A stretch of DNA of 64,000 bases from Pelagibius sp. CAU 1746 (GTDB taxonomy: Bacteria; Pseudomonadota; Alphaproteobacteria; Kiloniellales; Kiloniellaceae): assembly GCF_039839785.1 (NCBI RefSeq), contig NZ_JBDOQT010000001.1, positions 2,294,001 through 2,358,000 of the forward strand, in the 5' to 3' direction. This document shows, piece after piece, positions 232 through 18,572 of the stretch. The notes under the pieces were generated by a model. That model did not search any database. It was given only the letters and a program-made list of their open reading frames with translations, and was not told the DNA's origin. The position numbers were made by a program, and so were the translations under genes. Every line of letters begins with the position of its first letter. Position 1 is the stretch's first letter.

Positions 232-385
232 TGCAAGCCGGAAGGATGCCCGAGGCGGCACCATCTGATATTACGGGGCGGGGGCGGTTGCCATCCCCCC
301 GCGGCTCCCGCGAGAGCCCGGGCCAGCGTCAGTTCAAGCGAGGTATGACCGCAGCGTGACTTTGTCAAGTAAGCCCAACGAGACC

Positions 386-814
386 ATGGCCAAGTTCGGC
401 TACCCCGGCAGCCTGATCCGCGATTACCGCCGCTGGGTGGTGCTGCTGCGCCCGCATCAGGCGACGCTGGCCGCCCTGGTGCTGGTTTGCAAGGACGAGG
501 CGCAGGCCTTCGGCGACATCTCGGGCGAAGCCTTCGCGGAGTTGCAGCAGGTGATCGGCGACATCGAGGCGGGGCTCGGCGCCTTCCGCCCCTATCGGAA
601 GATCAACTACCTGATGCTGATGATGGTGGACAAGGACGTGCATTTCCACGTCCTGCCGCGCTATGACGCGGCCCAGGAGTTCCAGGGACTCGTCTTCGAG
701 GACACCGGCTGGCCGGCGGCCCCGGCGCTCGCCGGCGGCCTCCATCCGGAGCCCGCGGAGCTGGACGAACTGGCCGCTGCGGTAAGGGCGGTTTGGCCGG
801 CCCCGGCCGGCTGA
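386..814 (+). CDS. HIT-like nucleotide-binding family protein
   Basis: A 142-residue protein of the histidine triad superfamily, whose members hydrolyse or transfer nucleotide phosphates (for example dinucleoside polyphosphates). The signature near residues 85-92 reads DVHFHVLPR, so the first histidine of the usual H-x-H-x-H triad is Asp while the central and last ones remain. I chose the ATG at 386, because the family begins with the KFGYP stretch; a GTG at 356 would add ten residues. The gene ends 29 bases before lptF and may be cotranscribed with it, but nothing ties the two functionally. Substrate unknown. Confidence 0.75.
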   Translation: MAKFGYPGSLIRDYRRWVVLLRPHQATLAALVLVCKDEAQAFGDISGEAFAELQQVIGDIEAGLGAFRPYRKINYLMLMMVDKDVHFHVLPRYDAAQEFQGLVFEDTGWPAAPALAGGLHPEPAELDELAAAVRAVWPAPAG

Positions 815-843: not shown

Positions 844-2076
844 ATGTCGACCATCAACAGCTACATCCTGCGGCAGACGCTGGGTCCGCTCTTCGCGGCC
901 ATCGGCATCGCACTGCTGGTATTGCTGACCGAGCGCATGCTGCGGCTGCTCGACCTGGTGCTGGATACCGGCGGCGGGCTGACGGTGTTGCTGCAGATGC
1001 TGGCCTTCCTGGTGCCGCACTACATGGCTTTGGCGCTGCCGGTCGCCTTCTTTCTTGGCGTGCTGCTGGCTTTCAGCCGCCTGCACCACAGCCGTGAGTT
1101 GGACGCGCTCGGGTCGGCGGGCATCAGCCTGTCGCGCCTCATGGTCCCGGTGGTCCTTCTGGGGATCGGCCTTTCGGTCCTCTCGGCAGCGAATTTCGCA
1201 GTGGGCCAACCCTACACGCGCTACATCTATCGCGCCCTGGTGCACAATGTGTCGGAGGCGGCGGCGAACGTCTATCTGAAGGAGCGAACCTTCATGGAAG
1301 TGAAGGGCGTGACCTTCATGGCCGAGCGCATTTGGCGCAACAGTCAGGAGTTTGCGAAGGTCTTCATCTACCAGGAGGACGACAAGGGCCAGGCGATCGC
1401 GACGACGGCCGAGCGAGGCAGCCTCCACGTGGCCCCGAAGGGCGAGCAGTCGACCTTGCTGCTGCGTGACGGCGTGCGGCTGGAAACGCCGATCGAAAAG
1501 CCGGACGAGGCCGGGGCGGAGAGCCGCAGTTCCGCCGGCCAGGCAGGCGCCCTGCAGTTCGACCAGCTTCAGGTGCCCATCGACCTGGTGGGACAAGAGG
1601 GGTTCCGGCCGCGCGGCGAGGATGAACGCGAGCTCACCCTCTTCGAGCTTTGGCGCTATCGCCACGCACCGCCGCAGGGGGTGACGACGGACCAGATGCT
1701 GGCGGACTTCCACGATCGCCTCGTGCGCAGCTTCTCCGTTCTCTTTCTGCCTTTCCTGGCGGTGTCCTTCGCCCTGGGGCCGCGGCGTGCGCGGCAGTCC
1801 TACGGCATCGCCGCGGGCCTGCTGATTCTGGTGGCCTACAATCAGGCCCTCAGCATCGGCAAGTCGCTGGCTTCTATCGGCAGCGTGCCGCCTCTTCTCG
1901 GGCAATGGCTGCCTTTCGCCGCCCTGGCGCTGGGCAGCGCCTGGCTCTACTACCGCAGCGCTTTCGTGGTGCCGCCGGGCGGCGCCGGCCGTTTCTCTCC
2001 GATTGCTATCCTGGAGGATGCGGTGCAGACCCTGCGCGCCGGCCTGCGCATGAAGCGGCGCCGGCCGTCGGATTGA
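844..2076 (+). CDS. lptF: LptF/LptG-family permease (LptF-like)
   Basis: Inner-membrane half of the ABC transporter LptB2FG that extracts lipopolysaccharide and passes it to the Lpt bridge. The 410-residue product has the YjgP/YjgQ layout: membrane helices in the first 130 residues, a periplasmic beta-jellyroll insert (about 140-270) containing the typical phrase YLKERTFMEV, and a C-terminal helical bundle. The ATG at 844 starts MSTINSYILRQ, the normal N terminus. It is followed 47 bases later by lptG. No lptD, surA or lptB lies nearby, and the next genes build sphingolipid-type lipids, so this pair may serve a lipid other than LPS. The family is sure; the substrate is open. Confidence 0.9.
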   Translation: MSTINSYILRQTLGPLFAAIGIALLVLLTERMLRLLDLVLDTGGGLTVLLQMLAFLVPHYMALALPVAFFLGVLLAFSRLHHSRELDALGSAGISLSRLMVPVVLLGIGLSVLSAANFAVGQPYTRYIYRALVHNVSEAAANVYLKERTFMEVKGVTFMAERIWRNSQEFAKVFIYQEDDKGQAIATTAERGSLHVAPKGEQSTLLLRDGVRLETPIEKPDEAGAESRSSAGQAGALQFDQLQVPIDLVGQEGFRPRGEDERELTLFELWRYRHAPPQGVTTDQMLADFHDRLVRSFSVLFLPFLAVSFALGPRRARQSYGIAAGLLILVAYNQALSIGKSLASIGSVPPLLGQWLPFAALALGSAWLYYRSAFVVPPGGAGRFSPIAILEDAVQTLRAGLRMKRRRPSD

Positions 2077-2123: not shown

Positions 2124-3206
2124 ATGAAGACCCTGGCAGGCTATCTCACGCGGCTGCTGGTGATGCGCTTCCTGCTGCTGCTCTTCGGTATGGGCGCCTT
2201 CCTGCTGGGCCTCGACCTGATGGTCAACGCCAATAGCCTCTTGACCGAGGGCGGCGGCATCGAGCCGCTGGTCCGCTATATCCTGCTGCGCAGCCCGACC
2301 ATCGTCTCCGACCTCATCAAGATTGCCACCCTGCTGGCCGGGCTGCTGACCTTCGCGACTCTGATCCGCCATGGGGAGCTGACGGCGATTTGGGGCGCCG
2401 GCATTTCGCAGTTCGGACTCTTCCTGCGGCTCATTCCGCTGGCGGTCGTGCTGGGCGGCCTGCAGTTCGCCGTCGACGATTTCGCGGTGCCCGTGGGCTT
2501 CGACGGCCTGCGCGAGTGGGGCATCGGTGAGTACGATCGGGCGGACGGCGCCGGCCTGACCGAAGGCGTGACCTGGATCCATGTCGGCCGCGACATCGTG
2601 CGGGTGCCCACCGCGAACATCGGGGAAGGACGCCTCGACGATTTCACGATCTTCCAGCGTGACGACAACGGCGGCCTGCTGGCCCGGCTCGACGTTGCCG
2701 AGGCCCACTATGCCGGCGGCTTGTGGGTTTTGAGCGGCATAGAGGAGCGCAGCGCCCAGGGCGGCGTGCTGAGGCAGAGTGCCCGCCGCGACTGGCGCAT
2801 TTCGCTGGACCCGGAAAGCCTGCGCAATCTCAGCGCCCATCCCCGCCATCTCTCTTTCGATCAGATCAGCCGTTTCGCCGGAGGCGATGGGCAGGGCACC
2901 TGGGCGCCCTACCTCTACCGCACCTGGCTTTACGAGAAGTTCAGCACCTGCCTGGTGCCGCTGCTGATGCTGCTGCTTTGCGCCGCCCTGGCGCAGCAGT
3001 CGCAGCGCAGCGGCCGGGTCGAGCTGCTGTTCCTCGGCGGCATTGCCATCGGCTTCGCCTTCTTCATTTTCAACGGCATCACCCTGGCGATGGGCGAGGT
3101 GGGGCTGCTGCCGCCGCTGATCGCCAGCGCCGTGCCCCTGGTGGCCCTTACCGCCGTCGCCATGAGCGTCATCTACTGGCACGAACTGAAGAAGCGGCCG
3201 GCTTAG
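2124..3206 (+). CDS. lptG: LptF/LptG-family permease (LptG-like)
   Basis: Partner permease of the preceding gene (360 residues). It opens with a helix containing TLAGYLTRLLV and three N-terminal membrane segments, then a periplasmic jellyroll domain (about 135-260), and closes with three helices; this is the standard LptG fold. In the known system LptF and LptG form the lateral gate through which lipid enters from the periplasmic leaflet of the inner membrane. The start ATG at 2124 is the first in frame after the lptF stop. A 120-base gap separates it from the lipid headgroup operon on the same strand, so co-regulation is possible but not shown. Confidence 0.9.
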   Translation: MKTLAGYLTRLLVMRFLLLLFGMGAFLLGLDLMVNANSLLTEGGGIEPLVRYILLRSPTIVSDLIKIATLLAGLLTFATLIRHGELTAIWGAGISQFGLFLRLIPLAVVLGGLQFAVDDFAVPVGFDGLREWGIGEYDRADGAGLTEGVTWIHVGRDIVRVPTANIGEGRLDDFTIFQRDDNGGLLARLDVAEAHYAGGLWVLSGIEERSAQGGVLRQSARRDWRISLDPESLRNLSAHPRHLSFDQISRFAGGDGQGTWAPYLYRTWLYEKFSTCLVPLLMLLLCAALAQQSQRSGRVELLFLGGIAIGFAFFIFNGITLAMGEVGLLPPLIASAVPLVALTAVAMSVIYWHELKKRPA

Positions 3207-3326: not shown

Positions 3327-4493
3327 GTGAGAGTTCACTTGCCCGCTGAGAAGGAGCCACGGCCAATTGTCGCCGCCATCGTCGGCGCCGCCGATCCCCG
3401 GGTGTGGTGCGCCAGCGCTGGAGAGCGCCTGCGCCGTCAGCTCGCCCGAGCCGGCGTCACAGAGATCGTCGAGGAAGGCGCGCTGGCCGGGCAGGAAGGC
3501 TCCGTTCTGCTGCTGCGCTCGGAGGGCGTTATCGACACGCCGCTGCTCCAGGCGCTGCTCGCGGCGCCGGGCGCGGTGCTGCTCTCCAACGGCGCTCCGT
3601 CGGGCGTGCCTCTGGCGGTTCACGCTCCGGCCGGACTGGCCGGCGCGGCGGCCGAAGTGTTGCGGCACGACGGCGCCGGGGAACTGCCCGAAGGCTTGCA
3701 GGCCGTCACCAGCGGCGACCTCGGCGCCTCCTACTGGCAGGCGCTGCGCAAGCGAGAGGAGCCCTATGCCCTGCTTTTACGCGCGGAAAGCCTGAAGCCC
3801 ATCGAGTGGCGCATGTTCATGGGCACCTACAAAGGCGCCACCGACTTCGTCACCAAGTGGTTCTGGCCGCGTCCGGCCTTTCACGCGACCAAGCTCTGCG
3901 CGCGGCTCGGCATCACGCCGAACCAGGTGACGGCGCTGAGTGCGATCCTGGTCGTCGCCGCCTTCTACTGGTTCTGGGAGGGCAACTGGCTGCCCGGCCT
4001 GCTGGCCGCCTGGGGCATGACCTTCCTCGACACCGTCGACGGCAAGCTGGCCCGCATCACCCTGCAGTCCAGCAAGTGGGGCAACGTCTTCGACCACGGC
4101 ATCGATCTGGTGCATCCGCCCTTCTGGTACTGGGCCTGGGGCGTCGGCCTGCAGCAGGCCGTCAGCCCGGACAGCCTGGCGCTGATGCTTGTCGTGATCG
4201 TCGCCGGCTACGTGCTGCAGCGGGTGATCGAGGGCCTCGCCATTTGGCGCCTGGGCCTGGAAATCCACGTCTGGCGCAAGATCGACACCTGGTTCCGCCT
4301 TTTCACCGCGCGGCGCAATCCCAACCTGGTGCTGCTGACCCTCTTCGCGCTCTTTGGCCGCCCGGACCTGGGTCTCGCCGCGGTGGCCGTATGGACGGCG
4401 GTCTGCCTGCTGCTGCATGCCCTGCAGATCCTGCAGGCGCTTTTCGCGGCGCGCCGCGGCAGGCTGAATTCCTGGATGGCGGGGCCGGCGTGA
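3327..4493 (+). CDS. CDP-alcohol phosphatidyltransferase with N-terminal extension
   Basis: Integral membrane enzyme that swaps CMP of a CDP-activated molecule for an alcohol or phosphate group. The 388-residue product carries the complete family signature D-x2-D-G-x2-A-R-x8-G-x3-D-x3-D at residues 235-260 (it begins DTVDGKLAR), surrounded by hydrophobic helices. The first ~170 residues form a soluble domain with a Rossmann-like pattern, reminiscent of a decayed nucleotidyltransferase domain as in bifunctional inositol-phosphate enzymes, but without a clear catalytic motif. Start: GTG at 3327. It overlaps the next gene by four bases (stop TGA 4491-4493, next start GTG 4490). Context suggests a sphingolipid or phospholipid headgroup transferase; donor and acceptor are unknown. 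Confidence 0.85.
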   Translation: MRVHLPAEKEPRPIVAAIVGAADPRVWCASAGERLRRQLARAGVTEIVEEGALAGQEGSVLLLRSEGVIDTPLLQALLAAPGAVLLSNGAPSGVPLAVHAPAGLAGAAAEVLRHDGAGELPEGLQAVTSGDLGASYWQALRKREEPYALLLRAESLKPIEWRMFMGTYKGATDFVTKWFWPRPAFHATKLCARLGITPNQVTALSAILVVAAFYWFWEGNWLPGLLAAWGMTFLDTVDGKLARITLQSSKWGNVFDHGIDLVHPPFWYWAWGVGLQQAVSPDSLALMLVVIVAGYVLQRVIEGLAIWRLGLEIHVWRKIDTWFRLFTARRNPNLVLLTLFALFGRPDLGLAAVAVWTAVCLLLHALQILQALFAARRGRLNSWMAGPA

Positions 4494-5491
4494 GCGCCGG
4501 CGGCGGGAAGCCCAGGATCGGCGTCATCACCAACCCCGGCAGCCAGCGCAACAAGGCGGGCCTGGGGGAACTGCGGGAACTGCTCGACGGCGCGTCCAAT
4601 GTCGAGCACGCCGTGCTCGACAAGATCACCGACATCCCGGAGATCCTGCGCGGCTTCGCCCGGCAGGAGGTTGGCGTGGTGGCCGTGGCCGGAGGCGACG
4701 GCACGGTGCAGGCGGCGCTGACCGAGCTCTACGGCCAGCGCCCTTTCGAAAGCGACCCGCTGCTGGTGGTGGTGCCGCGCGGCATGACCAACATGATCGC
4801 CGCCGACGTCGGCCTGAAGCGGCGCGGCCTCGCGGGGCTGCGGCGGCTGCTGGCCGCCGATGCGGAGATCCTGGCGCGCGCCTGCCTCTCGCGGCGCATC
4901 CTGCGCCTGGAGAACGCCCTGAACCTGCCGCCGCAATACGGTATGTTCTTCGGCGGCGCCGGGATCACCCGCGCCATCGATGCCTGCCGCAGCAAGGTCC
5001 ATCCCTACAACATCAAGTCGGACTCGGCGGCGGCGGTGACCCTGGCGGGCCTGTTGGGCAGTTGGCTGCTGCGCGGCGGGGGGAACGGCCGCGAGGGAGG
5101 AAGCATCTTCTACGGCGACAGGATCGCGATGACCTTTGACGACGCCCCGACACAGACGCTGGAGAGTCTGCTGATCCTCGCGACCACATTGGACAAGCTG
5201 ATCCTCGGCAGCCGGCCCTTCTGGGACGGCGGGGGCGACGAGCCCGGGGGCCATTTGCGATTCACCGCCATCGCCTATCCTCCCAAGGGAATGCTGCGCT
5301 ACGCCCTGCGCATCCTCTACGGCGGCCCCCAGCGCAAGCTGCCGCCGGAGACCTATCTGAGCCGCAGCCCGCGGCGCGTGGCGCTGGCCATGGACTGTCC
5401 CTTCACCCTGGACGGCGAGATCTTCGAGCCGGCACCGGGCAAGGAGATCGTCCTGAGCGCCGCCGACGAAGCCCGTTTCGTGAGGCTGTGA
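4490..5491 (+). CDS. Diacylglycerol/ceramide kinase family protein
   Basis: Lipid kinase of the DAGK catalytic family (333 residues) with the nucleotide-binding signature AGGDGTVQAA near residues 70-79 and the second loop VPRGMTNMIAADVG near 97-110. These kinases phosphorylate diacylglycerol, sphingosine or ceramide at the inner membrane. The gene starts at a GTG inside the stop codon of the CDP-alcohol transferase and ends three bases before the next gene, so the three are translationally coupled. From memory, Caulobacter has a ceramide kinase of this family (CpgB) in the middle of a three-gene set beside spt; the same position here suggests ceramide is the substrate, but diacylglycerol is not excluded. 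Confidence 0.85.
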   Translation: MSAGGGKPRIGVITNPGSQRNKAGLGELRELLDGASNVEHAVLDKITDIPEILRGFARQEVGVVAVAGGDGTVQAALTELYGQRPFESDPLLVVVPRGMTNMIAADVGLKRRGLAGLRRLLAADAEILARACLSRRILRLENALNLPPQYGMFFGGAGITRAIDACRSKVHPYNIKSDSAAAVTLAGLLGSWLLRGGGNGREGGSIFYGDRIAMTFDDAPTQTLESLLILATTLDKLILGSRPFWDGGGDEPGGHLRFTAIAYPPKGMLRYALRILYGGPQRKLPPETYLSRSPRRVALAMDCPFTLDGEIFEPAPGKEIVLSAADEARFVRL

Positions 5492-5494
5492 ACG

Positions 5495-6415
5495 GTGCCC
5501 GGCGACGCGCTGACGGCTTTGCGGGAGGCGGAGACGGCCGAGGCGGTGGCCGCGCCGATCGCCGCCATCGTCGAAGCCGCGCGCGCGCGCCACGGCGCGG
5601 CGGTCTCGGCGGTGATCTTCTACGGCTCCTGCCTGCGCCTGGGCGACGACGACGGCAAGGTTGTCGATCTCTATCTGCTGGTCGACAGCTACGCCGCGGT
5701 CTACGGCCGGGGCCTGCGGGCTTTCCTGAACTGGGTGCTGCCGCCCAACGTCTTCTACCTGGAAGCGCCTTTCGAGGGTCGCCAGGTGCGCGCCAAGTAC
5801 GCGCTGGTCTCGCTGGCCGATTTTGAGCGCGGTGCCTCGGGGCGCTGGTTCCATCCCTATCTCTGGGCCCGCTTCGCGCAGCCCTGCCGCCTGCCATACT
5901 GCCGCGACGCGGCGGTGCGCGCGCGGGTGGTGGCGGCGCTCTGCGGGTCGGCGCGCAAGGTGGCGGGCGAGGGGCTGGCCCTGGTCGACGGTGTCTTCAA
6001 CAGCCGCGATCTCTGGGTTTCCGTGTTCCGCCAGACCTACCGCACCGAGCTGCGCGCCGAACCGCCGGAGCGGGCGGAGGAGATCTACCAGGCCAACGCC
6101 GCCCATTACGGCGAGGTGGCGGCGACGGTGCTGCCGCTGCTGGGCGCGCGGGCGGCGGGCGGCGGCTGGCAGGCGCCGGCGCAGCCGCGCCCGAACCTCA
6201 AATGGCTGCTGCGCCGCTGGCAGGGCAAGCTGTTGTCGGTGGCCCGCCTGGTGAAGGCGGCCTTCACCTTCCAGGATGGCGCGCAGTACCTGCTGTGGAA
6301 GATCGAGCGGCACTCGGGCGTCAATATCGAGGTGACGCCCTGGCAGCGCCGCCATCCGGTCCTGGCCTCGTCGGTGCTGTTCTGGAAGCTCTACCGCAAG
6401 GGCGCGTTCAGGTAG
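5495..6415 (+). CDS. Nucleotidyltransferase-like protein resembling Tam41 CDP-diacylglycerol synthase
   Basis: A 306-residue protein with no signal peptide. Residues 41-64 hold a nucleotidyltransferase-like pattern, IFYGSCLR followed by VVDLYLLVD, that is a Gly-Ser pair and downstream acidic residues. Residues 84-130 continue with NVFYLEA, RAKYALVSLADF and LWARFAQP, which follow the order seen in Tam41/Mmp37, the mitochondrial peripheral CDP-diacylglycerol synthase (there: FNP, KYGV and YLAGRLQKP). I infer a CTP-dependent enzyme activating the phosphorylated lipid made by the kinase before it. The start is a GTG at 5495, three bases after the previous stop. The motifs are seen, the homology is inferred and untested; it may instead make another CDP-linked headgroup. 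Confidence 0.6.
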   Translation: MPGDALTALREAETAEAVAAPIAAIVEAARARHGAAVSAVIFYGSCLRLGDDDGKVVDLYLLVDSYAAVYGRGLRAFLNWVLPPNVFYLEAPFEGRQVRAKYALVSLADFERGASGRWFHPYLWARFAQPCRLPYCRDAAVRARVVAALCGSARKVAGEGLALVDGVFNSRDLWVSVFRQTYRTELRAEPPERAEEIYQANAAHYGEVAATVLPLLGARAAGGGWQAPAQPRPNLKWLLRRWQGKLLSVARLVKAAFTFQDGAQYLLWKIERHSGVNIEVTPWQRRHPVLASSVLFWKLYRKGAFR

Positions 6416-6424
6416 CGGCGGCCC

Positions 6425-6475
6425 CTATTCGGCGGCGGCCCCTATTCGGCGGCGGCCCCTATTCGGCGGCGGATT
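6425..6475. repeat. 17-bp tandem repeat, three copies, at the spt 3' end
   Basis: The unit CTATTCGGCGGCGGCCC occurs at 6425-6441 and 6442-6458, with a third near-copy at 6459-6475. The third copy supplies the spt stop codon and last codons; the first two duplicate this end in the short space between convergent genes. Looks like slippage duplication. Confidence 0.85.
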
Positions 6476-7673
6476 GCGCGGCTTCCCACTCCTTGAGGGC
6501 GCGGCGGGCCGCATCGAAAACCTCGCAGACCTTCTGCACCTGGGCCGGAGTATGGGCGGCCGAGAGGCTGCAGCGCAGCAGGCAGGAGCCGTCCGGGGTG
6601 CCCGGCGGCAACGCGAGGTTCACATAGACGCCGGACTCGATCAGCGCGTTCCACATGAAGACCGCCGCCTCTTCGCTGGGCAGCTTGACGGCGATGATCG
6701 GGCTCGTCTCGGCGCAAATCTCGAAGCCCAGATCCTTCAGGCCGCCGTAGAGCGCCTTGGCGTTGTCCCAGAGTTGGCGGCGCAACTGCGGCTGGGATTG
6801 GATCTTCTTCAGGGTGGCCATGGCCGTGGCGATACTGGACGGCGAGGAGGAGGCCGTGAACATGTAGGGTCGGCTGGTGAAGCGAAGCTGCTCGAACTCC
6901 GGGTTGCTGGAGGCGCCGAAGCCGCCGACCGCGCCCAGGCTCTTGGAGAAGGTGCCGACCACGTAGTCGACGTCGTCCTCGACGCCGTAAGCCTCGGCGA
7001 TGCCGCGGCCGTTCTCGCCGAAGACGCCCAGGGAATGCGCCTCGTCGACCAGCAGGTCCACGCCATGGCGGCGCTTCACGTCGACGAATTCGTCCAGCGG
7101 CGCCTGGTCGCCCAGCATGGAATAGATACCCTCGACGATGATCAGCTTGCTCGTTCCGTCGCCCTTGAGGCGCTCCAGGCGCTTGTCGAGATCGGCCGGG
7201 GAGTTGTGGCGGAACCGGATCAAGGTGGCGCCGCTGAGGCGGCAGCCGTCGTAGATGCTGGCGTGGGAGTCGGCGTCCAGCAGGATGATGTCCTTGGGAC
7301 CGGCCAGGCCTGCGATGATGCCCAGGTTGGCCTGATAGCCGGTCGGGAAGACCATGGCGGCCTCGCGGCCCAGGAAGGCCGCGATTTCCTGCTCCAGCAC
7401 GCGGTGGCTGGCATAGGTGCCGTTGGCGATGCGCGAACCTGTGGTGCCGGTGCCCTGCTGGCGCACGGCTTCCACCGTGGCCTCGACGCAGTCGGGATCG
7501 AAGGTCAGGCCCAGGTAGTTGTTGGTGCCGACCAGGATGGTCTCGCGCCCGTCGATGATCGCCTCGGTTGCCGAGACGATGCGGTCCATGCACATGTTGA
7601 AAGGGTCCCTGCCGGCCGCCAGGAGGCGGTTGTGGCGGAGGGTGATCTGATCGTATTTATCGAACAGGCTCAT
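6459..7673 (-). CDS. spt: Serine palmitoyltransferase (alpha-oxoamine synthase)
   Basis: PLP enzyme condensing L-serine with an acyl thioester to 3-ketosphinganine, the first step of sphingolipid synthesis. The 404-residue product has the alpha-oxoamine synthase features: GTTGSR, the DEAHSLG loop around the PLP-ring aspartate (residue ~210), and the PLP lysine in GTFSKSLGAVGG (~245). 8-amino-7-oxononanoate synthase and KBL share the fold, but an acyl carrier protein gene starts just upstream in the same operon (4-base gap) and a reductase and acyl-ACP synthetase follow the Caulobacter spt gene order, so SPT is the best reading. Start ATG at 7673. The C terminus ends in a repeat-bearing region. 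Confidence 0.88.
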   Translation of the reverse strand: MSLFDKYDQITLRHNRLLAAGRDPFNMCMDRIVSATEAIIDGRETILVGTNNYLGLTFDPDCVEATVEAVRQQGTGTTGSRIANGTYASHRVLEQEIAAFLGREAAMVFPTGYQANLGIIAGLAGPKDIILLDADSHASIYDGCRLSGATLIRFRHNSPADLDKRLERLKGDGTSKLIIVEGIYSMLGDQAPLDEFVDVKRRHGVDLLVDEAHSLGVFGENGRGIAEAYGVEDDVDYVVGTFSKSLGAVGGFGASSNPEFEQLRFTSRPYMFTASSSPSSIATAMATLKKIQSQPQLRRQLWDNAKALYGGLKDLGFEICAETSPIIAVKLPSEEAAVFMWNALIESGVYVNLALPPGTPDGSCLLRCSLSAAHTPAQVQKVCEVFDAARRALKEWEAAQSAAE

Positions 7674-7677
7674 GAGG

Positions 7678-7929
7678 TTAGCCCTTGCTCAGTTGTGCGA
7701 GCACCACATCGATCAGATCCTGGAGGTTGTTCACGTCCGGGAGCAGGCTGATCGGAATGTCGATCTCGAAGCGGTCTTCGATCTCCATGACCAGGTTCAT
7801 GGCCGCTACGGAATCCATATAGAGATCGGCGGAGAGGTCGGTTTCCGGCGTGATGTCGATGTCTTTGGGATTAAAGGGTTGAAGGAGCGTAATAATCTCC
7901 TCTTGGACCTTATCGGCAGTCCACTGCAT
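7678..7929 (-). CDS. acpR: Acyl carrier protein dedicated to sphingolipid synthesis
   Basis: Small acidic carrier protein (83 residues). The phosphopantetheine serine sits in the motif YMDSVAAMNLV (residues ~37-47), followed by the helix MEIEDRFEIDIP typical of ACPs. It is not the housekeeping ACP, whose motif is DSLDTVEL. The gene lies four bases upstream of spt and downstream of the reductase, so it probably delivers the acyl chain loaded by the synthetase at 9118-10914 to serine palmitoyltransferase. The symbol follows my recollection of the Caulobacter nomenclature. The 117 bases before its start hold no gene. Confidence 0.87.
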   Translation of the reverse strand: MQWTADKVQEEIITLLQPFNPKDIDITPETDLSADLYMDSVAAMNLVMEIEDRFEIDIPISLLPDVNNLQDLIDVVLAQLSKG

Positions 7930-8046
7930 GTCGTTCCCTCATGATCGCGGCCTTCTGGCTTTGGAAGGGGCCCCGTTTCCTACCTGGTTCCCCCCAACGG
8001 CAACCGGGCGGCGCGTGCGGTGTCCGCGATGCCTGGGACGCGCGCG

Positions 8047-9057
8047 TCAAAGCCAGCCAGCAGCCTTATACCACGCGACGGTCTTGGAGAAACCCTCGTC
8101 CAGGCCTACCGCCGGACGCCAGGAAATGCAATCGCTCAGCGACGGGGAGCCGGGCAGAGCCTCGGGCGGCCGGGGACGGCAGACCCAGTCGGGATGGCCG
8201 ATTTCGTTGACCTTGCCCTGGGACAGCACGGCGGGGCGGCCGCTCACCAGAGCGCCGGCGGTCCCGAGGGCCGCGGCCAGGCGCTGAAGCGCAGGGGGGA
8301 CGGCGATGGCCCGCACGGGCCGTCCGGCCAGGCGCGCGGCGGCGGCCAGCAGTTCCGGCCAGCCATAGCCCCCGGCAGTGCCGTCATCGGGCTCCAGGAT
8401 GCCGCCGGACGGCAGCTCCGGGGCCAGGGCGGCCACCGCGGCGGCGGCCAGGTCCTCAACATAGATCATGGAAAAACGCCCGCCGCCGCCGGGCACCAGG
8501 GCGAGGCCGCGCAGGAACTGCCGGAACAGGGGCAGAGTGGCCCGGTCGCCCGGCCCGTAGACCACGGCGGGTCGCAGGATCCGCCAGTCCAGATCCGCGC
8601 CGATGCGGCGCAGTTCCTCTTCGGCCTGGCGCTTGCTGTGGGCGTAGGGCGAGAGCTGCGGCTCCCGCGCCGCGAGGGAGGACATGAGCACGAAACACGG
8701 TGCGTCTCCGCCGGCCCGTTTTCTCGCTGTCACGGCGCGCAGCAGGGCCGCCGTGCCTTCCGCATTGACGCGCAGGAAGTCCGCCTTGCGCCGCGCGGCC
8801 ACCAGGCCGGCGCAGTGGATCACCGCGTCCACGCCGGCGACCAGCTCGGCCAGGGCCTCTGCGGACCCGAGGTCGCCCGGAATCGGCGTCACGGTGCCCG
8901 GCGCCACGCCCTCGATCCCGGGCAAGCTGTCGGGGCGGCGGGTGAGGGCGCGCACCTGCCAGCCCTCGGCGACCAAGCGGCGCAGGATATGGCCGCCAAC
9001 GAAGCCGGAGCCGCCGGTCAGGGCGATACTGCCGCGGGGCGTGGTCGCGTCGTTCAT
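8047..9057 (-). CDS. cerR: NAD(P)-dependent epimerase/reductase of the sphingolipid locus
   Basis: Extended short-chain dehydrogenase (336 residues). The N-terminal nucleotide-binding loop reads GGSGFVGGH (residues ~15-23), the catalytic Tyr and Lys are in YAHSK (~150), and RPAVVYGPGD follows. In Caulobacter the gene in this place (CerR) reduces the keto group of the sphingoid or ceramide intermediate; the same role is inferred from gene order. Enzymes of this family also epimerise sugars, so sequence alone does not fix the substrate. It lies 60 bases downstream of the synthetase and 117 upstream of the ACP. Confidence 0.8.
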   Translation of the reverse strand: MNDATTPRGSIALTGGSGFVGGHILRRLVAEGWQVRALTRRPDSLPGIEGVAPGTVTPIPGDLGSAEALAELVAGVDAVIHCAGLVAARRKADFLRVNAEGTAALLRAVTARKRAGGDAPCFVLMSSLAAREPQLSPYAHSKRQAEEELRRIGADLDWRILRPAVVYGPGDRATLPLFRQFLRGLALVPGGGGRFSMIYVEDLAAAAVAALAPELPSGGILEPDDGTAGGYGWPELLAAAARLAGRPVRAIAVPPALQRLAAALGTAGALVSGRPAVLSQGKVNEIGHPDWVCRPRPPEALPGSPSLSDCISWRPAVGLDEGFSKTVAWYKAAGWL

Positions 9058-9117
9058 GGTTGTCTGTCGGCCCCGCGCGGGCGGGGCGGGCTCCCGGCGC
9101 CGGGCGGCGCGGCCAAG

Positions 9118-10914
9118 CTAGCTGCGCTGCTCGGAATAGGCTGGGGCCGGCGCGGCCTGCCGGCTGGTAGCGAGATTGAGATCGCAGATCTCTCCGGAGA
9201 TGTAGTCGGCTTTCACCGCCGAACGGCTGAGCTTGCCGGAGGAGGTGAACTTGAGGGTCTTCGGCGGCACCAGGACCACGCGGCAGTCGGCACCGCAGGT
9301 CTTGCGCACCGTGGCCGCAACCTTCTTGCGCAGGCTTTCGCGCGCGGCGATGTCGTGCAAGCGGCATTGCAGGACGACGATCATGCGCTCGCTGCCGTCC
9401 GGCTCGATAACGGAGAAGCAGGCGACGTCGCTGCCACGGACTTCATCCAGGGCCTCGACCGCCCATTCGACGTCTTGGGGCCAGATGTTGAGGCCGTTGA
9501 GGATGACGAGATCCTTGCGGCGCCCGGTCACGACCAGCTTGCCGTCGATCATGTAGCCGAGGTCGCCGGTGTCGAGCCAGCCGTCCTCCGTGGTTACCGC
9601 GGCGGTGGCCGAGGGGTCGTTGAAGTAGCCGTCCATGACGCTGGGGCCGCGCACGACGATGCGCCCGACGTTGTGGTCCGCCAGCGGCGCGTTGGTCTCG
9701 CTGCGCACCTCGACCTCGTGGCCGGGAATGGGCGCGCCGCAGACCACGAAGGAGCGGGCGGCGCGGTCGTTGCCGTTGACGGTGCCGTTGGCCTTGCCGT
9801 TGACCGGAGTGACGTTGCCGGTGTGGGTGTAGTGCTCCTGGTCGATACGGTCGACCTCGACGCCCTGGTCCAGTGCCGCGAAGGCGACGGCGAGCGTGGA
9901 TTCCGCCAAGCCGTAGCTGGGCAGGAAGGCTTTGGGCGAGAAACCCGTCACCGCGAAGGTCTCGGCAAAGCGGGCCAGCGTTTCGGCGCGGACCATCTCG
10001 CCGCCGATGCCGGCGACGCGCCAATGCGACAGGTCGATGGTCTTGGCCGACCCGTTGAGGCCGCGAGTCGCGCAGAGTTCGTAGCCGAAGGTCGGGCTGA
10101 AGGAGATGGTGCCGCCGTGCTGCGACAGCAGCTTCAACCAAGTCAGCGGGCGCAGGGCGAAGCTCTTGGTCGCCAGGTAGTCGAGAGTGATCTGACTCAG
10201 CATCGGGGTCAGGCAGAAGCCGACCAGGCCCATGTCATGGTACAGCGGCAACCAGGAGGTGGCGCGATCGCCGGCGCGCAGCTTCAGGCCGTGCTGGCCG
10301 ATGCCGCGGGCATTGCTGGTGATGGCGCGCTGGGAGACGAAGACGCCGCGCGGCAGGCTGGTGCTGCCCGAGGAATACTGGATGTAGCAGGCTTCGTCTT
10401 TGGCGAAGGGGCGCAGGTCGCCGCCTACGGCGGGCAGGGCGTAGAAGTCTTCGGGTGTGCCGACCATCTTCAGGCCGTCCGCCGCTTCCTTCAAGTAATG
10501 CAGCATCTCGGCGGGGCCGACGGCAATCTCGGCACCGGCGCGGGTGATCATGTTGCGCAGGCGTCCGACATAGGCTTCATGGCCGCCCAGGTTGATGGTC
10601 AGCGGCAGGGGCACCGGAATCAGGCCTGCGTACTGGCAGGCGTAAAAGAAGATCAGGAAGTCGGGGGAGGTTTCGGCAACCAGGGCGACGCGGGCGCCGC
10701 GTTCGAGCCCAAGGCGGCCAAAGCGCTGCGCGAGGGAAACGGCGCGGTCGCGAATGTCTCGATAAGTCAGCGCTTCGCGCAGCTCGCCGCGCGGGGAAAA
10801 GAAATTGCACCCGGTTTCGCCCTGGGCCGCGTAGTCCAATCCGTCGACGAGTGTTTCGAATTCTGCGATGCGGAACGACAGGTTGCTGTTCGTTGATGCC
10901 GTAACACTTGGCAT
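9118..10914 (-). CDS. aasR: Fatty acyl-AMP ligase / acyl-ACP synthetase
   Basis: Adenylate-forming enzyme (598 residues) of the FAAL type: the ATP loop is YSSGSTSLPRGV (residues ~176-187), the A5-like region holds YGLAEST, and the C-terminal part carries DTGDLGY, VTGRRKDLVI and a final SGKLSRSAVK with the catalytic lysine. It would activate a fatty acid with ATP and load it on the ACP encoded downstream, feeding serine palmitoyltransferase. First gene of the four-gene minus-strand operon. Start ATG at 10914 with AGGGA 7 bases upstream. Alternative: a polyketide-loading FAAL, but no such synthase is nearby. Confidence 0.85.
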   Translation of the reverse strand: MPSVTASTNSNLSFRIAEFETLVDGLDYAAQGETGCNFFSPRGELREALTYRDIRDRAVSLAQRFGRLGLERGARVALVAETSPDFLIFFYACQYAGLIPVPLPLTINLGGHEAYVGRLRNMITRAGAEIAVGPAEMLHYLKEAADGLKMVGTPEDFYALPAVGGDLRPFAKDEACYIQYSSGSTSLPRGVFVSQRAITSNARGIGQHGLKLRAGDRATSWLPLYHDMGLVGFCLTPMLSQITLDYLATKSFALRPLTWLKLLSQHGGTISFSPTFGYELCATRGLNGSAKTIDLSHWRVAGIGGEMVRAETLARFAETFAVTGFSPKAFLPSYGLAESTLAVAFAALDQGVEVDRIDQEHYTHTGNVTPVNGKANGTVNGNDRAARSFVVCGAPIPGHEVEVRSETNAPLADHNVGRIVVRGPSVMDGYFNDPSATAAVTTEDGWLDTGDLGYMIDGKLVVTGRRKDLVILNGLNIWPQDVEWAVEALDEVRGSDVACFSVIEPDGSERMIVVLQCRLHDIAARESLRKKVAATVRKTCGADCRVVLVPPKTLKFTSSGKLSRSAVKADYISGEICDLNLATSRQAAPAPAYSEQRS

Positions 10915-13445: not shown

Positions 13446-14225
13446 TCAGCGGCCTTTCCAGTCCGGTTTGCGCTTGGCGAGGAAGGCTTCCAGGCCTTCG
13501 CGGAAGTCGGCGCTGGTGTAGCACATGACGATGAGGTCCTCGTCCTCCACCTCGGCGCCGGCCACGGCGAGGCGGCGCAGGGCCTCCTTGGTCGCCTTGA
13601 GGGTCAGCGGTGCCTGGCCGGCGAGCTGCTCCGCGAGTTCGGCCGCGCGCGCCTCCACCGCCGCCTTGCCGTCCAGCAGCTCGGTCACCAGGCCCGCCGC
13701 GAAGGCTTCCTCGGCGCCGACCAGGCGGCTGGTGAAAATGACCTCCTTGGCGCGTCCGGCCCCCATCAAGGCCGAGAGGCGGGCCAGGTTCATGGCCGAG
13801 AGGCAGTTGCCCAGCGTGCGGGCGATGGGAAAGCCGAACTTCAAGTCGCGCGCGGCGATGCGGATGTCGCAGGCCGCGGCGATGCCGGCGCCGCCGCCGG
13901 TGCAGGCCCCGGCCAGCGCCGCCACGGTGGGCAGCGGGCAGCGTTCCACCGCCGTCAGCACCCGGTCGATACGCCGTTCGTACTGTATTGCATCCTCGGG
14001 CGTCTTGAAGTCCCGGAACTGGGCGATGTCGGTGCCGGCGGCGAAGGCCTTGTCGCCGGCGCCCTGGATGACCAGGGCCTTGGCGTCGCCTTTGTCGGCG
14101 GCGGTGCCGCAGATCTCCGCCAGGCCTTCGTACATGGCGAAGGTCAGGGCGTTGCGCGCCTGCGGCCGGTTGAAGGTGACGAAACCGATGCCGTCACGCA
14201 CTTGGTAGAGCAGTTCGTCGCTCAT
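13446..14225 (-). CDS. Enoyl-CoA hydratase/isomerase (crotonase) family, catalytic Glu residues missing
   Basis: Crotonase-fold protein (259 residues). The first oxyanion-hole segment AFAAGTDIAQF (residues 60-70) and the second in CTGGGAGIAAACD (108-120) are present. Where hydratases carry their two catalytic glutamates (GGGxE and xPE), this protein has Gly114 and Ile134 (FGFPIARTLG). It therefore is unlikely to hydrate a double bond in the normal way, and could be an isomerase, hydrolase, racemase or decarboxylase of the superfamily. It sits directly upstream of the CoA-transferase, so its substrate is probably the CoA ester made there. Confidence 0.85.
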   Translation of the reverse strand: MSDELLYQVRDGIGFVTFNRPQARNALTFAMYEGLAEICGTAADKGDAKALVIQGAGDKAFAAGTDIAQFRDFKTPEDAIQYERRIDRVLTAVERCPLPTVAALAGACTGGGAGIAAACDIRIAARDLKFGFPIARTLGNCLSAMNLARLSALMGAGRAKEVIFTSRLVGAEEAFAAGLVTELLDGKAAVEARAAELAEQLAGQAPLTLKATKEALRRLAVAGAEVEDEDLIVMCYTSADFREGLEAFLAKRKPDWKGR

Positions 14226-14234
14226 GACTTCATC

Positions 14235-15515
14235 CTACCTGTAGAAGTACTCGACCAGGAACATCGGGATAGCCGGCACGTAGGTGCAGATCATCAGTAC
14301 CGTCAATAGCACGGCGATGAAATAGACGTTCACCTTCGAGACTTCCCAGATGTTGGCGCGGGCCACGGTGCAGGCGGTGATCAGCACGCTGGCGACCGGC
14401 GGCGTCTGCTGGCCGATGGCCAGGTTGAGCGTCACCACCAGGCCGAAATGGACCGGATCGATGCCGGCCGCCGCGATCAGCGGGATGACGATGGGAACGA
14501 CCAGGATGATCGCCGCCGCCGAATGCAGGAAGAAGCCGATCACCAGGAAGAAGACGTTGAGGATCAGCAGGATGACGTACTTGTTCTCGGTGAAGTCGAG
14601 GATCGCCGCGGCGAGATCCTGCGGCACCTGGGCGCGGGTCAGGAATCCGCCCATCAGGACGGAGGAGGCGACCAGCAGCATGACCACCGCCGTCTGTATT
14701 CCGCCGTCCAGCATCGCCCGTTTCAGGTGGCGGATGTCGATCTGCCGATACCAGAGACCGACCAGCAGGGCGGCGATGACCGCCAGGCCCGCGGCCTCGG
14801 TCGCGGTCACGAAGCCGCCGAAGATGCCGCCCAGAATGATGATGGGCAGGGTGAAGGCCGGCAGGGCCTCGACGAAGGTGCGCCGCAGGCGCGCCATGTC
14901 GAAGGCTTCCTCGACGGGCAGGTTGTAACGGCGCGCGAAGGCGTAGGCGACGCCCATCAGGCCGGCGGCGCCGATCAGCCCGGGGACCACGCCAGCGACG
15001 AAGAGCTGCTCCACCGAGGTGCCGGCGGAGACGGCGTAGAGGATCATCGGGATCGAAGGCGGGATGATGATCGCCAAGGAGGCCGAGGAAGAGGTGACCG
15101 CGGCGGCGAGCGGTCCGCTATAGCCGCGCTTCTTCATCTGCGGAATGAGGATCGAGCCCAGCGCCGCCACGTCGGCCACCGCCGAGCCGGAGATCTCAGC
15201 GAAGAACAGCGAGACGCCGATGTTGATCATGGCCAGTCCGCCGCGCACGAAGCCGATCAGGGCGGAGACGAAGTTGATCAAGCGGTCGGTGATGCCGCCG
15301 GCGTTCATGATGGCTCCGGCCAGCACGAACATCGGGATGGCGATGAGCGAGAACTTCGTGGAGCCGTCGTACATGTCGAGGGCGACGGTGACCAGGCTGC
15401 CGGCGCCCTCGGTGGCGACCAGGCCGATGACAGCGGAAACCGCCAGCGCGATGGCGATCGGCACGTTGAGGCAGATCATCAGCACCAGGGCTGCGAAAAT
15501 CACGAACATAAGCAT
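14235..15515 (-). CDS. dctM: TRAP transporter large permease (DctM)
   Basis: Main membrane subunit of a sodium-driven TRAP carboxylate transporter (426 residues, about 12-13 hydrophobic segments). Typical phrases are VPIAIALAVS near the N terminus, AEISGSAVADVAALGSILIP, the IIPPSIPMILY loop and TPPVASVLITAC. It works with the small subunit and periplasmic binding protein encoded just upstream. Three bases separate it from dctQ and nine from the crotonase. The transported acid is not evident from sequence. Confidence 0.92.
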   Translation of the reverse strand: MLMFVIFAALVLMICLNVPIAIALAVSAVIGLVATEGAGSLVTVALDMYDGSTKFSLIAIPMFVLAGAIMNAGGITDRLINFVSALIGFVRGGLAMINIGVSLFFAEISGSAVADVAALGSILIPQMKKRGYSGPLAAAVTSSSASLAIIIPPSIPMILYAVSAGTSVEQLFVAGVVPGLIGAAGLMGVAYAFARRYNLPVEEAFDMARLRRTFVEALPAFTLPIIILGGIFGGFVTATEAAGLAVIAALLVGLWYRQIDIRHLKRAMLDGGIQTAVVMLLVASSVLMGGFLTRAQVPQDLAAAILDFTENKYVILLILNVFFLVIGFFLHSAAAIILVVPIVIPLIAAAGIDPVHFGLVVTLNLAIGQQTPPVASVLITACTVARANIWEVSKVNVYFIAVLLTVLMICTYVPAIPMFLVEYFYR

Positions 15516-15518
15516 GGC

Positions 15519-16061
15519 TCAGCGGCCTCCCGCCTGTTTCAGTTCGTGCTCCACTTCCTGCTCGATTTCGGCATGCTCCAGCGAGGTGCCGGAGGCGGTC
15601 ATGCGCCAGTAGTGCGGTAAACTGAGAAGTTCACAGAGGATGAACAGCGCGCCGCCGATCGGGATGACCGACTGGGTGAGCTGCACCGGCACCCAGGTGA
15701 GGGAGATCAGGTAGGTACCTTCAAGCACCTCCAGCACCTCCATGCCCGCCCAGGTCATGATTACGAAGAAGCCGATGACGGTGATCTCGGCCAGCGCCAC
15801 GGCGACCATGCGCGCCGGCATGGGGACGGCCAGAAGGACGCTGTCGAAGCCGATGTGGCTGCGCTTCAGCGCGGCCAGGGCTGCGCCGTAGTAGGTGATC
15901 CAGGAAAGCTGAATGGCGGCGATCTCGTCGTACCAGGACAGGGAGTCTCCCACCATACGGAAACAGACTGCGATGATGACCACCACGGAGAGGGCGACCA
16001 TCAGGATGATGGTGATCCACTCCAGCAGCCACTCCAGGGTTCTTTGGGCCGCCTTCAGCAT
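15519..16061 (-). CDS. dctQ: TRAP transporter small permease (DctQ)
   Basis: Small membrane subunit (180 residues, four hydrophobic helices) with the family phrase SWYDEIAAIQLSWITYYGAA and the conserved R/K-x-H-I-G-F-D segment (KRSHIGFD). I chose ATG 16061, which has AGGAG 11-12 bases upstream; a GTG at 16073 would leave no room for that site. It helps the DctM subunit engage the binding protein. Confidence 0.9.
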   Translation of the reverse strand: MLKAAQRTLEWLLEWITIILMVALSVVVIIAVCFRMVGDSLSWYDEIAAIQLSWITYYGAALAALKRSHIGFDSVLLAVPMPARMVAVALAEITVIGFFVIMTWAGMEVLEVLEGTYLISLTWVPVQLTQSVIPIGGALFILCELLSLPHYWRMTASGTSLEHAEIEQEVEHELKQAGGR

Positions 16062-16158
16062 CGGCAGGCACACTCCTCAAGATAGCGCCCATCGCCATTG
16101 CTTCGGCGGGCGAACGATTCTCGCCGGCAGGCGCCGGCACGGTGTCGCATGAAAGAAG

Positions 16159-16187
16159 AAACCCGGGACCGCTGGGGTCCCGGGTTT
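16159..16187 (-). terminator. Stem-loop between dctP and dctQ
   Basis: Perfect 12-bp stem (AAACCCGGGACC / GGTCCCGGGTTT) with a 5-base loop, followed on the minus strand by a T-rich run. It lies within the dctPQM operon just after dctP, so it probably ends or stabilises most dctP transcripts, giving more binding protein than permease. Confidence 0.8.
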
Positions 16188-16197
16188 GGGTCAAGCC

Positions 16198-17181: not shown

Positions 17182-17246
17182 TGTATCCTCCCCAGGGTTT
17201 TGTTTGTCGTTATCGCGGATCTGCGCAGGTGTTGATTGCTCTCGGT

Positions 17247-18434: not shown

Positions 18435-18572
18435 GCTTCCCCTATCAGCCGTTCCGGCTTTTCCCGACGGACCCGCTCGCGATACCTGCTGTTTGACCAG
18501 CCCTTGCGCATCCCGGGTTTTTGTCGCTATGAATACTGAATACAAAATACATATCTGAGGCGATTGTCAACA
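18435..18572. promoter_or_regulatory. Divergent promoter region with AATAC repeats
   Basis: This 138-base spacer drives the aminotransferase/TRAP operon leftward and the oxidase/GntR genes rightward. Around 18530-18556 it turns AT-rich and holds three close AATAC copies within TGAATACTGAATACAAAATAC, a plausible operator for the GntR/FCD regulator at 21541-22206. The operator assignment is inference. Confidence 0.4.

What the first reader, a model, noticed from the sequence alone, without database searches (positions are those of the whole stretch)
3327..10914. Complete-looking sphingolipid locus with a linked headgroup operon
Serine palmitoyltransferase, a dedicated ACP, a reductase and an acyl-ACP synthetase form one minus-strand operon, convergent with three coupled genes: a CDP-alcohol transferase, a DAGK-family kinase and a nucleotidyltransferase-like protein. 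This echoes the Caulobacter region in which ceramide synthesis and ceramide-phosphoglycerate genes are neighbours (recollection: kinase CpgB in the middle of a three-gene set). It predicts that this organism makes a ceramide with a phosphorylated, anionic headgroup. The headgroup chemistry is the undescribed part.
Basis: partly seen in the sequence, partly recalled or inferred. Interest (0 to 1): 0.85.

Follow-up and report, generated by a model that had tools for sequence, protein, structure and literature searches.

The report
Ceramide-diphosphoglycerate gene cluster with own mutase
This stretch carries genes by which an alphaproteobacterium probably builds and exports an acidic sphingolipid already known from Caulobacter, plus an added gene that may supply the small sugar-acid building block for its headgroup.

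Summary
The seven genes at 3327-10914 match, in order and relative orientation, the Caulobacter genes for ceramide and its phosphoglycerate headgroups (CPG, CPG2). The other published CPG2 genes lie just upstream, mostly outside the window: ceramide synthase, CpgD, a CC_1153-like nucleotidyltransferase and a phosphoesterase; so do a HIT gene and a second LptF/LptG pair. The headgroup is thus not undescribed; CPG/CPG2 is the best prediction. The synthase is a serine palmitoyltransferase by curated model, solved-structure match and tree. CpgC, without a Pfam match, is predicted to fold like the CDP-DAG synthase Tam41, which suggests a CDP-ceramide intermediate (inferred). Two points I did not see in the papers consulted: (1) here and in three relatives the cluster holds a phosphoglycerate mutase although this genome has a separate iPGM, a candidate for the 'dedicated yet unidentified' phosphoglycerate source proposed in 2025; (2) in 289 genomes gene presence is nested (SPT 40, CpgC 34, CpgA and CpgD the same 20), suggesting a first and a second headgroup step. 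A new variant of a known system; no activity or lipid was tested.

The parts
356..814 (+). HIT-family protein, ortholog of the gene between LptF2 and the phosphoesterase in Caulobacter L092 (CC_1157 by gene order; that label is inferred). Predicted nucleotidyl-His hydrolase or transferase.
   Evidence: Present in 67 of 80 related loci; xVHFHVxPRY stretch conserved; the Caulobacter ortholog passes Pfam HIT, 26.4 bits vs 21.5; the window copy scores only 14.3.
844..2076 (+). LptF2, second LptF-type permease subunit, predicted sphingolipid exporter
   Evidence: PF03739 230.9 bits (read from 847); the genome has another LptF/LptG pair, beside SurA and LptD, 24% identical to this LptF. Start ATG 844 or TTG 793.
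2124..3206 (+). LptG2, second LptG-type permease subunit
   Evidence: PF03739 174.2 bits; 20% identical to the other LptG.
3327..4493 (+). CpgA: CDP-alcohol phosphotransferase with a cytidylyltransferase-like N-terminal domain; predicted to move phosphoglycerate from CDP-glycerate to CPG
   Evidence: Pfam 43.9 bits; DxxDGxxARx8Gx3Dx3D motif, D235-D260, invariant in 19 of 19 rows; model pLDDT 89.5, nearest solved folds AF2299, PIP synthase and IPCT-DIPPS.
4490..5491 (+). CpgB: ceramide kinase, DAGK family
   Evidence: DAGK_cat 47.7 bits; GGDG present and the CxxxCxxC motif of eukaryotic ceramide kinase absent, as reported for Caulobacter CpgB (PMC10331486, passages).
5495..6415 (+). CpgC: Tam41-like nucleotidyltransferase fold, predicted CTP:ceramide-1-phosphate cytidylyltransferase
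   Evidence: No Pfam hit; 40-row alignment with invariant Y43 G44 D58 Y60 K101 and near-invariant S45 R48; model pLDDT 93.6; five best solved folds are all Tam41, best E 1.8e-8.
6459..7673 (-). Serine palmitoyltransferase
   Evidence: NF047599 636.6 bits vs 500; best solved match 2jg2 SPT 461.7 bits, best KBL 230; tree groups it with SPTs of the cluster.
7678..7929 (-). AcpR-type dedicated acyl carrier protein
   Evidence: PP-binding 41.8 bits; DS site; found in 49 of 80 loci.
8047..9057 (-). CerR-type NAD(P)-dependent reductase of the ceramide pathway
   Evidence: Pfam Epimerase 89.5 bits; 40% identical to the L092 (Caulobacter) protein.
9118..10914 (-). AasR-type acyl-ACP synthetase
   Evidence: NF006624 755.3 bits vs 600; 46% identical to the L092 protein.

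Best explanation
The region is an alphaproteobacterial gene cluster for making and exporting ceramide diphosphoglycerate. The minus-strand operon (AasR, AcpR, SPT, CerR) with the upstream ceramide synthase makes dihydroceramide, probably modified by the upstream fatty-acid hydroxylase. CpgB phosphorylates it. CpgC, with a Tam41-like fold, probably activates ceramide-1-phosphate with CTP to CDP-ceramide on the way to CPG; the enzyme that then attaches the first glycerate is not known. CpgD makes CDP-glycerate from CTP and 2-phosphoglycerate, and CpgA uses it to add the second phosphoglycerate. The cluster-borne phosphoglycerate mutase (L005:13264-14022, that is window -5736 to -4978) probably turns 3-phosphoglycerate into D-2-phosphoglycerate for CpgD. 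LptF2/LptG2 probably take the lipid out of the inner membrane towards the outer membrane. Shown here: gene similarity, order, motifs, co-occurrence. Shown by others in Caulobacter: CpgB and CpgD activities and the mutant lipid profiles. Inferred: everything about this organism's lipids, the CDP-ceramide step, the mutase role and export.
For: Same gene set as Caulobacter L092, with the seven reported genes in the same order. All 17 cluster proteins of this genome found in one order in L038, L039 and L040. SPT. CpgC fold. CpgA motif and fold. CpgD 46% identical to L092 over 216 residues, and strong CpgD matches (E<=1e-60) occur in exactly the 20 of 289 genomes that have CpgA. CpgC in 34 of 289, all inside the 40 with SPT. 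Mutase: TIGR01258 259.6 bits vs 81.7; residues aligning with E. coli GpmA H11, R62, E89 and H184 kept (those positions are recalled as catalytic); the only match over that cut-off in the genome, which has a separate iPGM; dN/dS about 0.28 and 0.16. CpgD prefers D-2-PG in vitro, and a dedicated phosphoglycerate source was proposed (PMC12275187).
Against: No lipid data. The mutase is in only 3 of 80 loci (L038-L040), in one clade with the window, so the pathway does not generally need it; its loop after the second catalytic His is HTSS where GpmA has HGNS, and it misses the strict equivalog NF010713, 261 vs 305, so mutase activity is not certain. A sequence profile of CpgC finds no solved Tam41 and only 2 of 40 members touch Pfam Tam41, best E 0.0036. 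LptC2, the putative flippase and CC_1167 of Caulobacter have no match in window, L005 or L006; the rest of the genome was not searched for them, nor for the CC_0202 hydroxylase. The CC_1153-like gene follows CpgC (33 of 34), not CpgA, although the published mutant lost CPG2 and kept CPG (PMC11324152).
Confidence: 0.82

Rival explanations
1. The final lipid is CPG or another phosphoglycerate ceramide rather than CPG2, or a phosphoinositol-type headgroup made by the CDP-alcohol transferase.
For: CpgA's nearest solved folds include PIP synthase, and its NCBIfam hits include PI-phosphate synthase, far below cut-off, 45.6 vs 170.
Against: CpgA and CpgD are both present and similar to the CPG2 pair of Caulobacter, and they occur in the same 20 of 289 genomes. 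Published CpgD makes CDP-glycerate.
Confidence: 0.12
2. The cluster mutase is a hitch-hiking glycolytic gene, or a phosphatase acting on a lipid or nucleotide intermediate, and does not feed CpgD.
For: Clade-restricted (3 of 80 loci); HTSS instead of HGNS after the second catalytic His; a separate iPGM could supply 2-PG.
Against: Adjacent and co-directional with hydroxylase, CerS and the CC_1153-like gene in all 4 genomes, with about 100-140 bases between mutase and hydroxylase in the three relatives (starts assigned by length); RHG and NERHYG stretches of GpmA kept; dN well under dS, as for its neighbours (dS to L040 is saturated).
Confidence: 0.4
3. CpgC does not activate ceramide-1-phosphate but uses its nucleotidyltransferase fold otherwise, for instance to transfer a glycerate group directly.
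For: The motif is G-S then D-x-Y, not the D-x-D of many Pol-beta-type enzymes (recalled); no transferase for the step after CDP-ceramide is known when CpgA is absent, as in 14 of 34 CpgC genomes.
Against: The five best fold matches are all Tam41, from three entries, two of them with CTP bound. The 2024 paper also read an InterPro CDP-DAG synthase domain in CC_1161.
Confidence: 0.35

Closest known systems
Caulobacter crescentus CC_1168-CC_1152 phosphosphingolipid cluster (CPG/CPG2)
   Same: Ceramide operon, CpgA-B-C, CpgD, CC_1153-like NTase, CC_1158-like phosphoesterase, HIT gene, LptF2/LptG2 and CerS; same order and relative orientation of SPT-ACP-CerR-AasR against CpgA-B-C (compared with L092, C. 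vibrioides DSM 9893; CC_ numbers assigned by gene order).
   Different: Here a phosphoglycerate mutase and a fatty-acid hydroxylase sit in front of CerS; the genes left of CpgA are rearranged and HIT, LptF2, LptG2 and phosphoesterase point the other way relative to CpgA; the LptC2, flippase and CC_1167 genes downstream of AasR in L092 are not in window, L005 or L006.
Tam41 mitochondrial and bacterial CDP-DAG synthase (for CpgC)
   Same: Predicted fold; five best solved matches.
   Different: 16% identity or less; lipid substrate would be ceramide-1-phosphate; no sequence-profile match to the solved Tam41 chains.
IPCT-DIPPS / AF2299 CDP-alcohol phosphotransferases (for CpgD plus CpgA)
   Same: A cytidylyltransferase and a membrane transferase with a cytidylyltransferase-like N-terminal domain; CpgD hits the IPCT-DIPPS NCBIfam model at 49.7 bits, far under its cut-off of 580.
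   Different: Two separate proteins; headgroup phosphoglycerate and acceptor a sphingolipid (published for CpgD, inferred for CpgA).

Membership tests
Bacterial serine palmitoyltransferase | Curated equivalog model above cut-off, not AONS/KBL | tested here: met
   NF047599 636.6 vs 500; bioF 327.6 vs 426.45 and KBL models below their cut-offs; the model NF047603 (SerpalmtaseAlphaP) is not reached, 514.1 vs 670.
Bacterial serine palmitoyltransferase | Groups with SPT rather than AONS/KBL in a tree | tested here: met
   52 SPT rows apart from E. coli BioF, Kbl and the genome's own paralog, 100/99; the outgroup branches are very long, so the split is an easy test.
CPG/CPG2 cluster of Caulobacter type | Five ceramide genes aasR, cerR, acpR, spt, cerS | tested here: met
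   All five present at the locus.
CPG/CPG2 cluster of Caulobacter type | Six headgroup genes CC_1161, 1160, 1159, 1158, 1153, 1152 | tested here: met
   Counterparts of all six by neighbourhood and similarity to L092, 28-51% identity; no reciprocal best-hit test was run.
CPG/CPG2 cluster of Caulobacter type | Second LptF/LptG pair | tested here: met
   Two pairs in the genome.
CPG/CPG2 cluster of Caulobacter type | LptC2 and putative flippase | tested here: inconclusive
   Not in window, L005 or L006; rest of the genome not searched.
CPG/CPG2 cluster of Caulobacter type | CPG and CPG2 in lipid extracts | not testable with these tools
   Needs mass spectrometry.
Tam41 CDP-DAG synthase (CpgC) | Fold | tested here: met
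   Foldseek E 1.8e-8 to 7ecd, TM 0.51 by query length.
Tam41 CDP-DAG synthase (CpgC) | Pfam PF09139 match | tested here: not met
   2 of 40 members, best E 0.0036 (Polbeta PF18765 in 3, best 0.002); window member no hit at E<=0.1. So it is read as working like a Tam41 by fold, not filed as a member.
2,3-BPG-dependent phosphoglycerate mutase | TIGR01258 above cut-off and catalytic His, Arg, Glu, His | tested here: met
   259.6 vs 81.7; the four positions kept against GpmA. The stricter equivalog NF010713 is not reached, 261.1 vs 305.
HIT family | Pfam HIT above cut-off | tested here: inconclusive
   Window 14.3 vs 21.5, not met; Caulobacter ortholog 26.4, met; HxH core kept.

The most novel reading that the evidence does not exclude
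The cluster encodes a self-supplied phosphoglycerate-lipid pathway using two opposite activation chemistries: a CDP-activated sphingolipid (CDP-ceramide, made by the Tam41-like CpgC) for the first phosphoglycerate and a CDP-activated acid (CDP-glycerate, made by CpgD from D-2-phosphoglycerate delivered by the cluster's own mutase) for the second, with the HIT protein policing a nucleotide intermediate of the second step.
Probability: 0.3. Interest if true: 0.75.

Novelty: new variant of a known kind. Interest (0 to 1): 0.5.

Why it matters
CPG2 helps Caulobacter live without LPS, so where it occurs and how its headgroup is made bears on how outer membranes can be built without lipid A. This locus gives another lineage with the eleven published CPG2 genes. 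It offers a candidate for the dedicated phosphoglycerate source that the CpgD authors proposed without knowing the enzyme, and so a way to learn which isomer is used in cells. The nested gene distribution predicts which bacteria stop at CPG and raises the CC_1153-like gene for retesting, and the CpgC model turns an 'unidentified mechanism' into one assay: CTP plus ceramide-1-phosphate.

Tried and rejected
AONS/KBL identity for the synthase: rejected. An undescribed headgroup: set aside because the eleven published CPG2 genes have counterparts here. A ceramide-free phosphoglycerate module in L094, L104 and L106, where CpgA, CpgD, the CC_1153-like gene, phosphoesterase and HIT sit without CpgB, CpgC and SPT within the DNA held: weakened, since 11 of 12 genomes checked (these three and nine more loci without SPT nearby) have an SPT elsewhere at E<=1e-60; the genome of L085 shows none. 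HIT as a strict CPG2 gene: only partly held. It is in 15 of 20 CpgA genomes and 0 of 14 with CpgC but no CpgA, yet also in 8 genomes with neither CpgA nor SPT; two of these (L125, L126) were fetched and show none of the other 16 cluster genes nearby. The phosphoesterase as a marker of the second step: not held, 14 of 20 CpgA genomes, 7 of 14 CpgC-only and 2 of the other 6 SPT genomes. Pfam, NCBIfam and a PDB sequence profile did not identify CpgC.

Literature searches, all within the held open-access library. (4 of 5 terms: ceramide, phosphoglycerate mutase, sphingolipid, gene cluster, bacteria): 304 papers, 10 listed; the two rows with the mutase term are about Aplysia and a cyanotoxin. (2 of CPG2, sphingolipid, mutase): 331 papers, 10 listed; none of the four with CPG2 holds mutase. 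'CDP-ceramide', 0 papers. (2 of Tam41, ceramide, Caulobacter): 101 papers, 15 listed, the only one with Tam41 is a review of lipid transfer proteins. No search was made for the nested gene distribution itself.

The 289 genomes are one class sample; the Fisher tests ignore relatedness. Cut-offs were set by me for each search.
Full report
What is there. The seven reported genes are all present. The plus-strand trio is tightly packed: the kinase, started at GTG 4490, overlaps the transferase by four bases, and three bases separate its stop from the third gene. Domain scans support each call except the third plus-strand gene, which has no Pfam match at E<=1. The window is G000:C1:2294001-2358000 of a 4.66 Mb genome. 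I fetched the 19 kb to its left (L005; window position = L005 position minus 19000) and found, from far to near, all but two on the plus strand: a 2,3-BPG-dependent phosphoglycerate mutase (L005 13264-14022), a fatty-acid hydroxylase (about 14055-14882), a GNAT-like ceramide synthase (14879-16048), an NTP_transf_3 protein like CC_1153 (16045-16845), a CpgD-like cytidylyltransferase (16852-17625, minus), a calcineurin-like phosphoesterase (17738-18661) and a DUF2141 protein (18668-19264, minus, reaching window 264). Then, in the window, HIT, LptF2 and LptG2 precede CpgA.

Is the synthase an SPT? NCBIfam NF047599 gives 636.6 bits against a cut-off of 500, while AONS and KBL models stay under theirs. 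The best solved matches are SPTs (461.7 bits), with KBL at 230. In a tree of 55 rows it sits with L038, L039 and L040 (96/96) inside the SPTs of the cluster and apart from E. coli BioF, Kbl and the genome's own paralog. The outgroup branches are very long, so the tree alone is a weak test; the other two do not depend on it.

Relation to Caulobacter. tblastn of 17 cluster proteins against them shows the Caulobacter vibrioides locus L092 with CpgD, CC_1153-like, CerS, LptG2, LptF2, HIT, phosphoesterase, CpgA, CpgB, CpgC, SPT, ACP, CerR and AasR, with best identities of about 28% to 55%. By the length filters, of 80 loci CpgC is in 67, HIT in 67, CpgB in 65, the CC_1153-like gene in 62, CerS in 58, CpgD in 56 and SPT in 51; many loci are truncated contigs, so these are lower bounds. 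Only L038, L039 and L040 (a Kiloniellaceae MAG, a Rhodospirillales MAG and Pelagibius litoralis) carry all 17 genes, in the order of this genome.

What the papers say. PMC11324152 (abstract, sections 8 part 1, 9 and 13, and passages): five genes for ceramide, six for CPG2, second LptC/F/G copies and a putative flippase; CC_1157 and CC_1167 'probably unrelated'; CC_1161 suggested to be CDP-DAG-synthase-like. PMC12275187 (parts 1 and 2 of 4; [quoted passage not shown] PMC13228409 (passages): CpgC acts 'via an unidentified mechanism'. PMC10331486 (passages, part of the abstract among them): CpgB is a ceramide kinase with GGDG and without the eukaryotic CxxxCxxC motif, which is also what the window kinase shows.

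CpgC. From 40 orthologs AlphaFold gives a confident model (pLDDT 93.6). Its five best matches among solved structures are Tam41 CDP-DAG synthases, best E 1.8e-8, TM 0.51; aminoglycoside nucleotidyltransferases and other Pol-beta-type folds follow. Sequence methods are nearly blind to this: 2 of 40 members touch Pfam Tam41, at best E 0.0036, and 3 touch Polbeta; a profile finds no Tam41 chain. The conserved YGS...R...D-x-Y pattern is where such enzymes usually carry their active site (recalled); I did not align it with Tam41 residue by residue. I infer CTP-dependent activation of ceramide-1-phosphate. No paper in the library holds the term CDP-ceramide; the 2024 paper had proposed an NDP-activated ceramide.

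CpgA. The full CDP-alcohol phosphotransferase motif is invariant in 19 of 19 rows. The model (pLDDT 89.5) matches AF2299, PIP synthase and IPCT-DIPPS, and stand-alone cytidylyltransferases weakly. Together with CpgD this looks like a split version of the IPCT-DIPPS logic.

Order of steps from gene distribution. In one sample of 289 genomes of the class: SPT in 40 (E<=1e-100), CpgC in 34 (E<=1e-8), CpgA in 20 (E<=1e-15), CpgD in the same 20 at E<=1e-60 with 7 more only at 1e-25 to 1e-20, CC_1153-like in 33 (E<=1e-12). The sets are nested: CpgA within CpgC within SPT. All 33 CC_1153-like genomes are among the 34 with CpgC; the missing one, G071, is 82% complete. The same-order genome G159 is a natural example: the 20 kb fetched hold the ceramide genes, CpgB, CpgC, LptF2/G2, phosphoesterase, CC_1153-like and hydroxylase, but no mutase (L127), and the genome has no CpgA, HIT or strong CpgD match. 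This fits ceramide, then CPG, then CPG2, and puts the CC_1153-like gene with the first headgroup step. That conflicts with the published mutant, which kept CPG and lost CPG2, though it also piled up ceramide; I leave this open.

HIT. The protein's INYLMLMMVDxxVHFHVxPRY stretch is much alike from the window to Caulobacter and Iodidimonas. Among the 40 SPT genomes it occurs only with CpgA: 15 of 20 against 0 of 20 without CpgA (Fisher p about 8e-7, relatedness ignored). The 2024 paper also reports Z. mobilis to lack both CC_1159 and CC_1157. Against this, 8 genomes have a HIT homolog with neither SPT nor CpgA, and 5 CpgA genomes show none. A role in the second step is plausible, not established.

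The mutase. It passes TIGR01258 (259.6 vs 81.7) but not the strict equivalog NF010713 (261.1 vs 305). Against E. coli GpmA the residues at H11, R62, E89 and H184 are kept in all four copies, but the loop after H184 reads HTSS instead of HGNS. It is the only match over the TIGR01258 cut-off in the genome, which also has an iPGM, so glycolysis does not obviously need it. It lies directly before the hydroxylase-CerS-CC_1153-like genes in all four genomes, with dN/dS of about 0.28 and 0.16 to L038 and L040, in the range of its neighbours (dS to L040 is saturated). I read it as a dedicated supplier of D-2-phosphoglycerate, at about 60%.

Export. The genome has two LptF/LptG pairs; the other lies beside SurA and LptD, and the window pair is only 20-24% identical to it. 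Export of the sphingolipid by LptF2/G2 is inference, following the published proposal.

Verdict. A genuine CPG2 cluster of the known Caulobacter kind, with the eleven published synthesis genes, in a lineage where a phosphoglycerate mutase and a hydroxylase have joined it.

Noticed in passing
L092:18512-19636 (-); L094, L104, L106 right after CpgA: A CC_1167-like protein with a weak CDP-glycerol glycerophosphotransferase match (PF04464, E 0.014, under cut-off) lies near the cpg genes in 22 of 85 stretches compared, the query's own included. Published as probably unrelated; it may belong to the phosphoglycerate pathway.
   Followed up: partly
G037:C11, G165:C4, G263:C4: Three genomes of one genus have three CpgA-like genes each, two of them divergent (33-38% identity) and within about 17 kb of the main one; possibly longer phosphoglycerate chains.
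   Followed up: no
window about 6412-6470: The convergent 3' ends of CpgC and SPT hold a unit of about 17 bases repeated three times (seen by eye).
   Followed up: no
L070, L082, L083, L110: The cluster occurs in beta- and gammaproteobacterial contigs too; in L082, L083 and L110 CpgA and CpgC are present without a detected CpgB in the DNA held (L082 ends soon after CpgC).
   Followed up: no
L127 (G159:C1:308000-327999): A same-order genome with a compact cluster lacking CpgA, CpgD, HIT and the mutase: a natural CPG-only candidate.
   Followed up: partly
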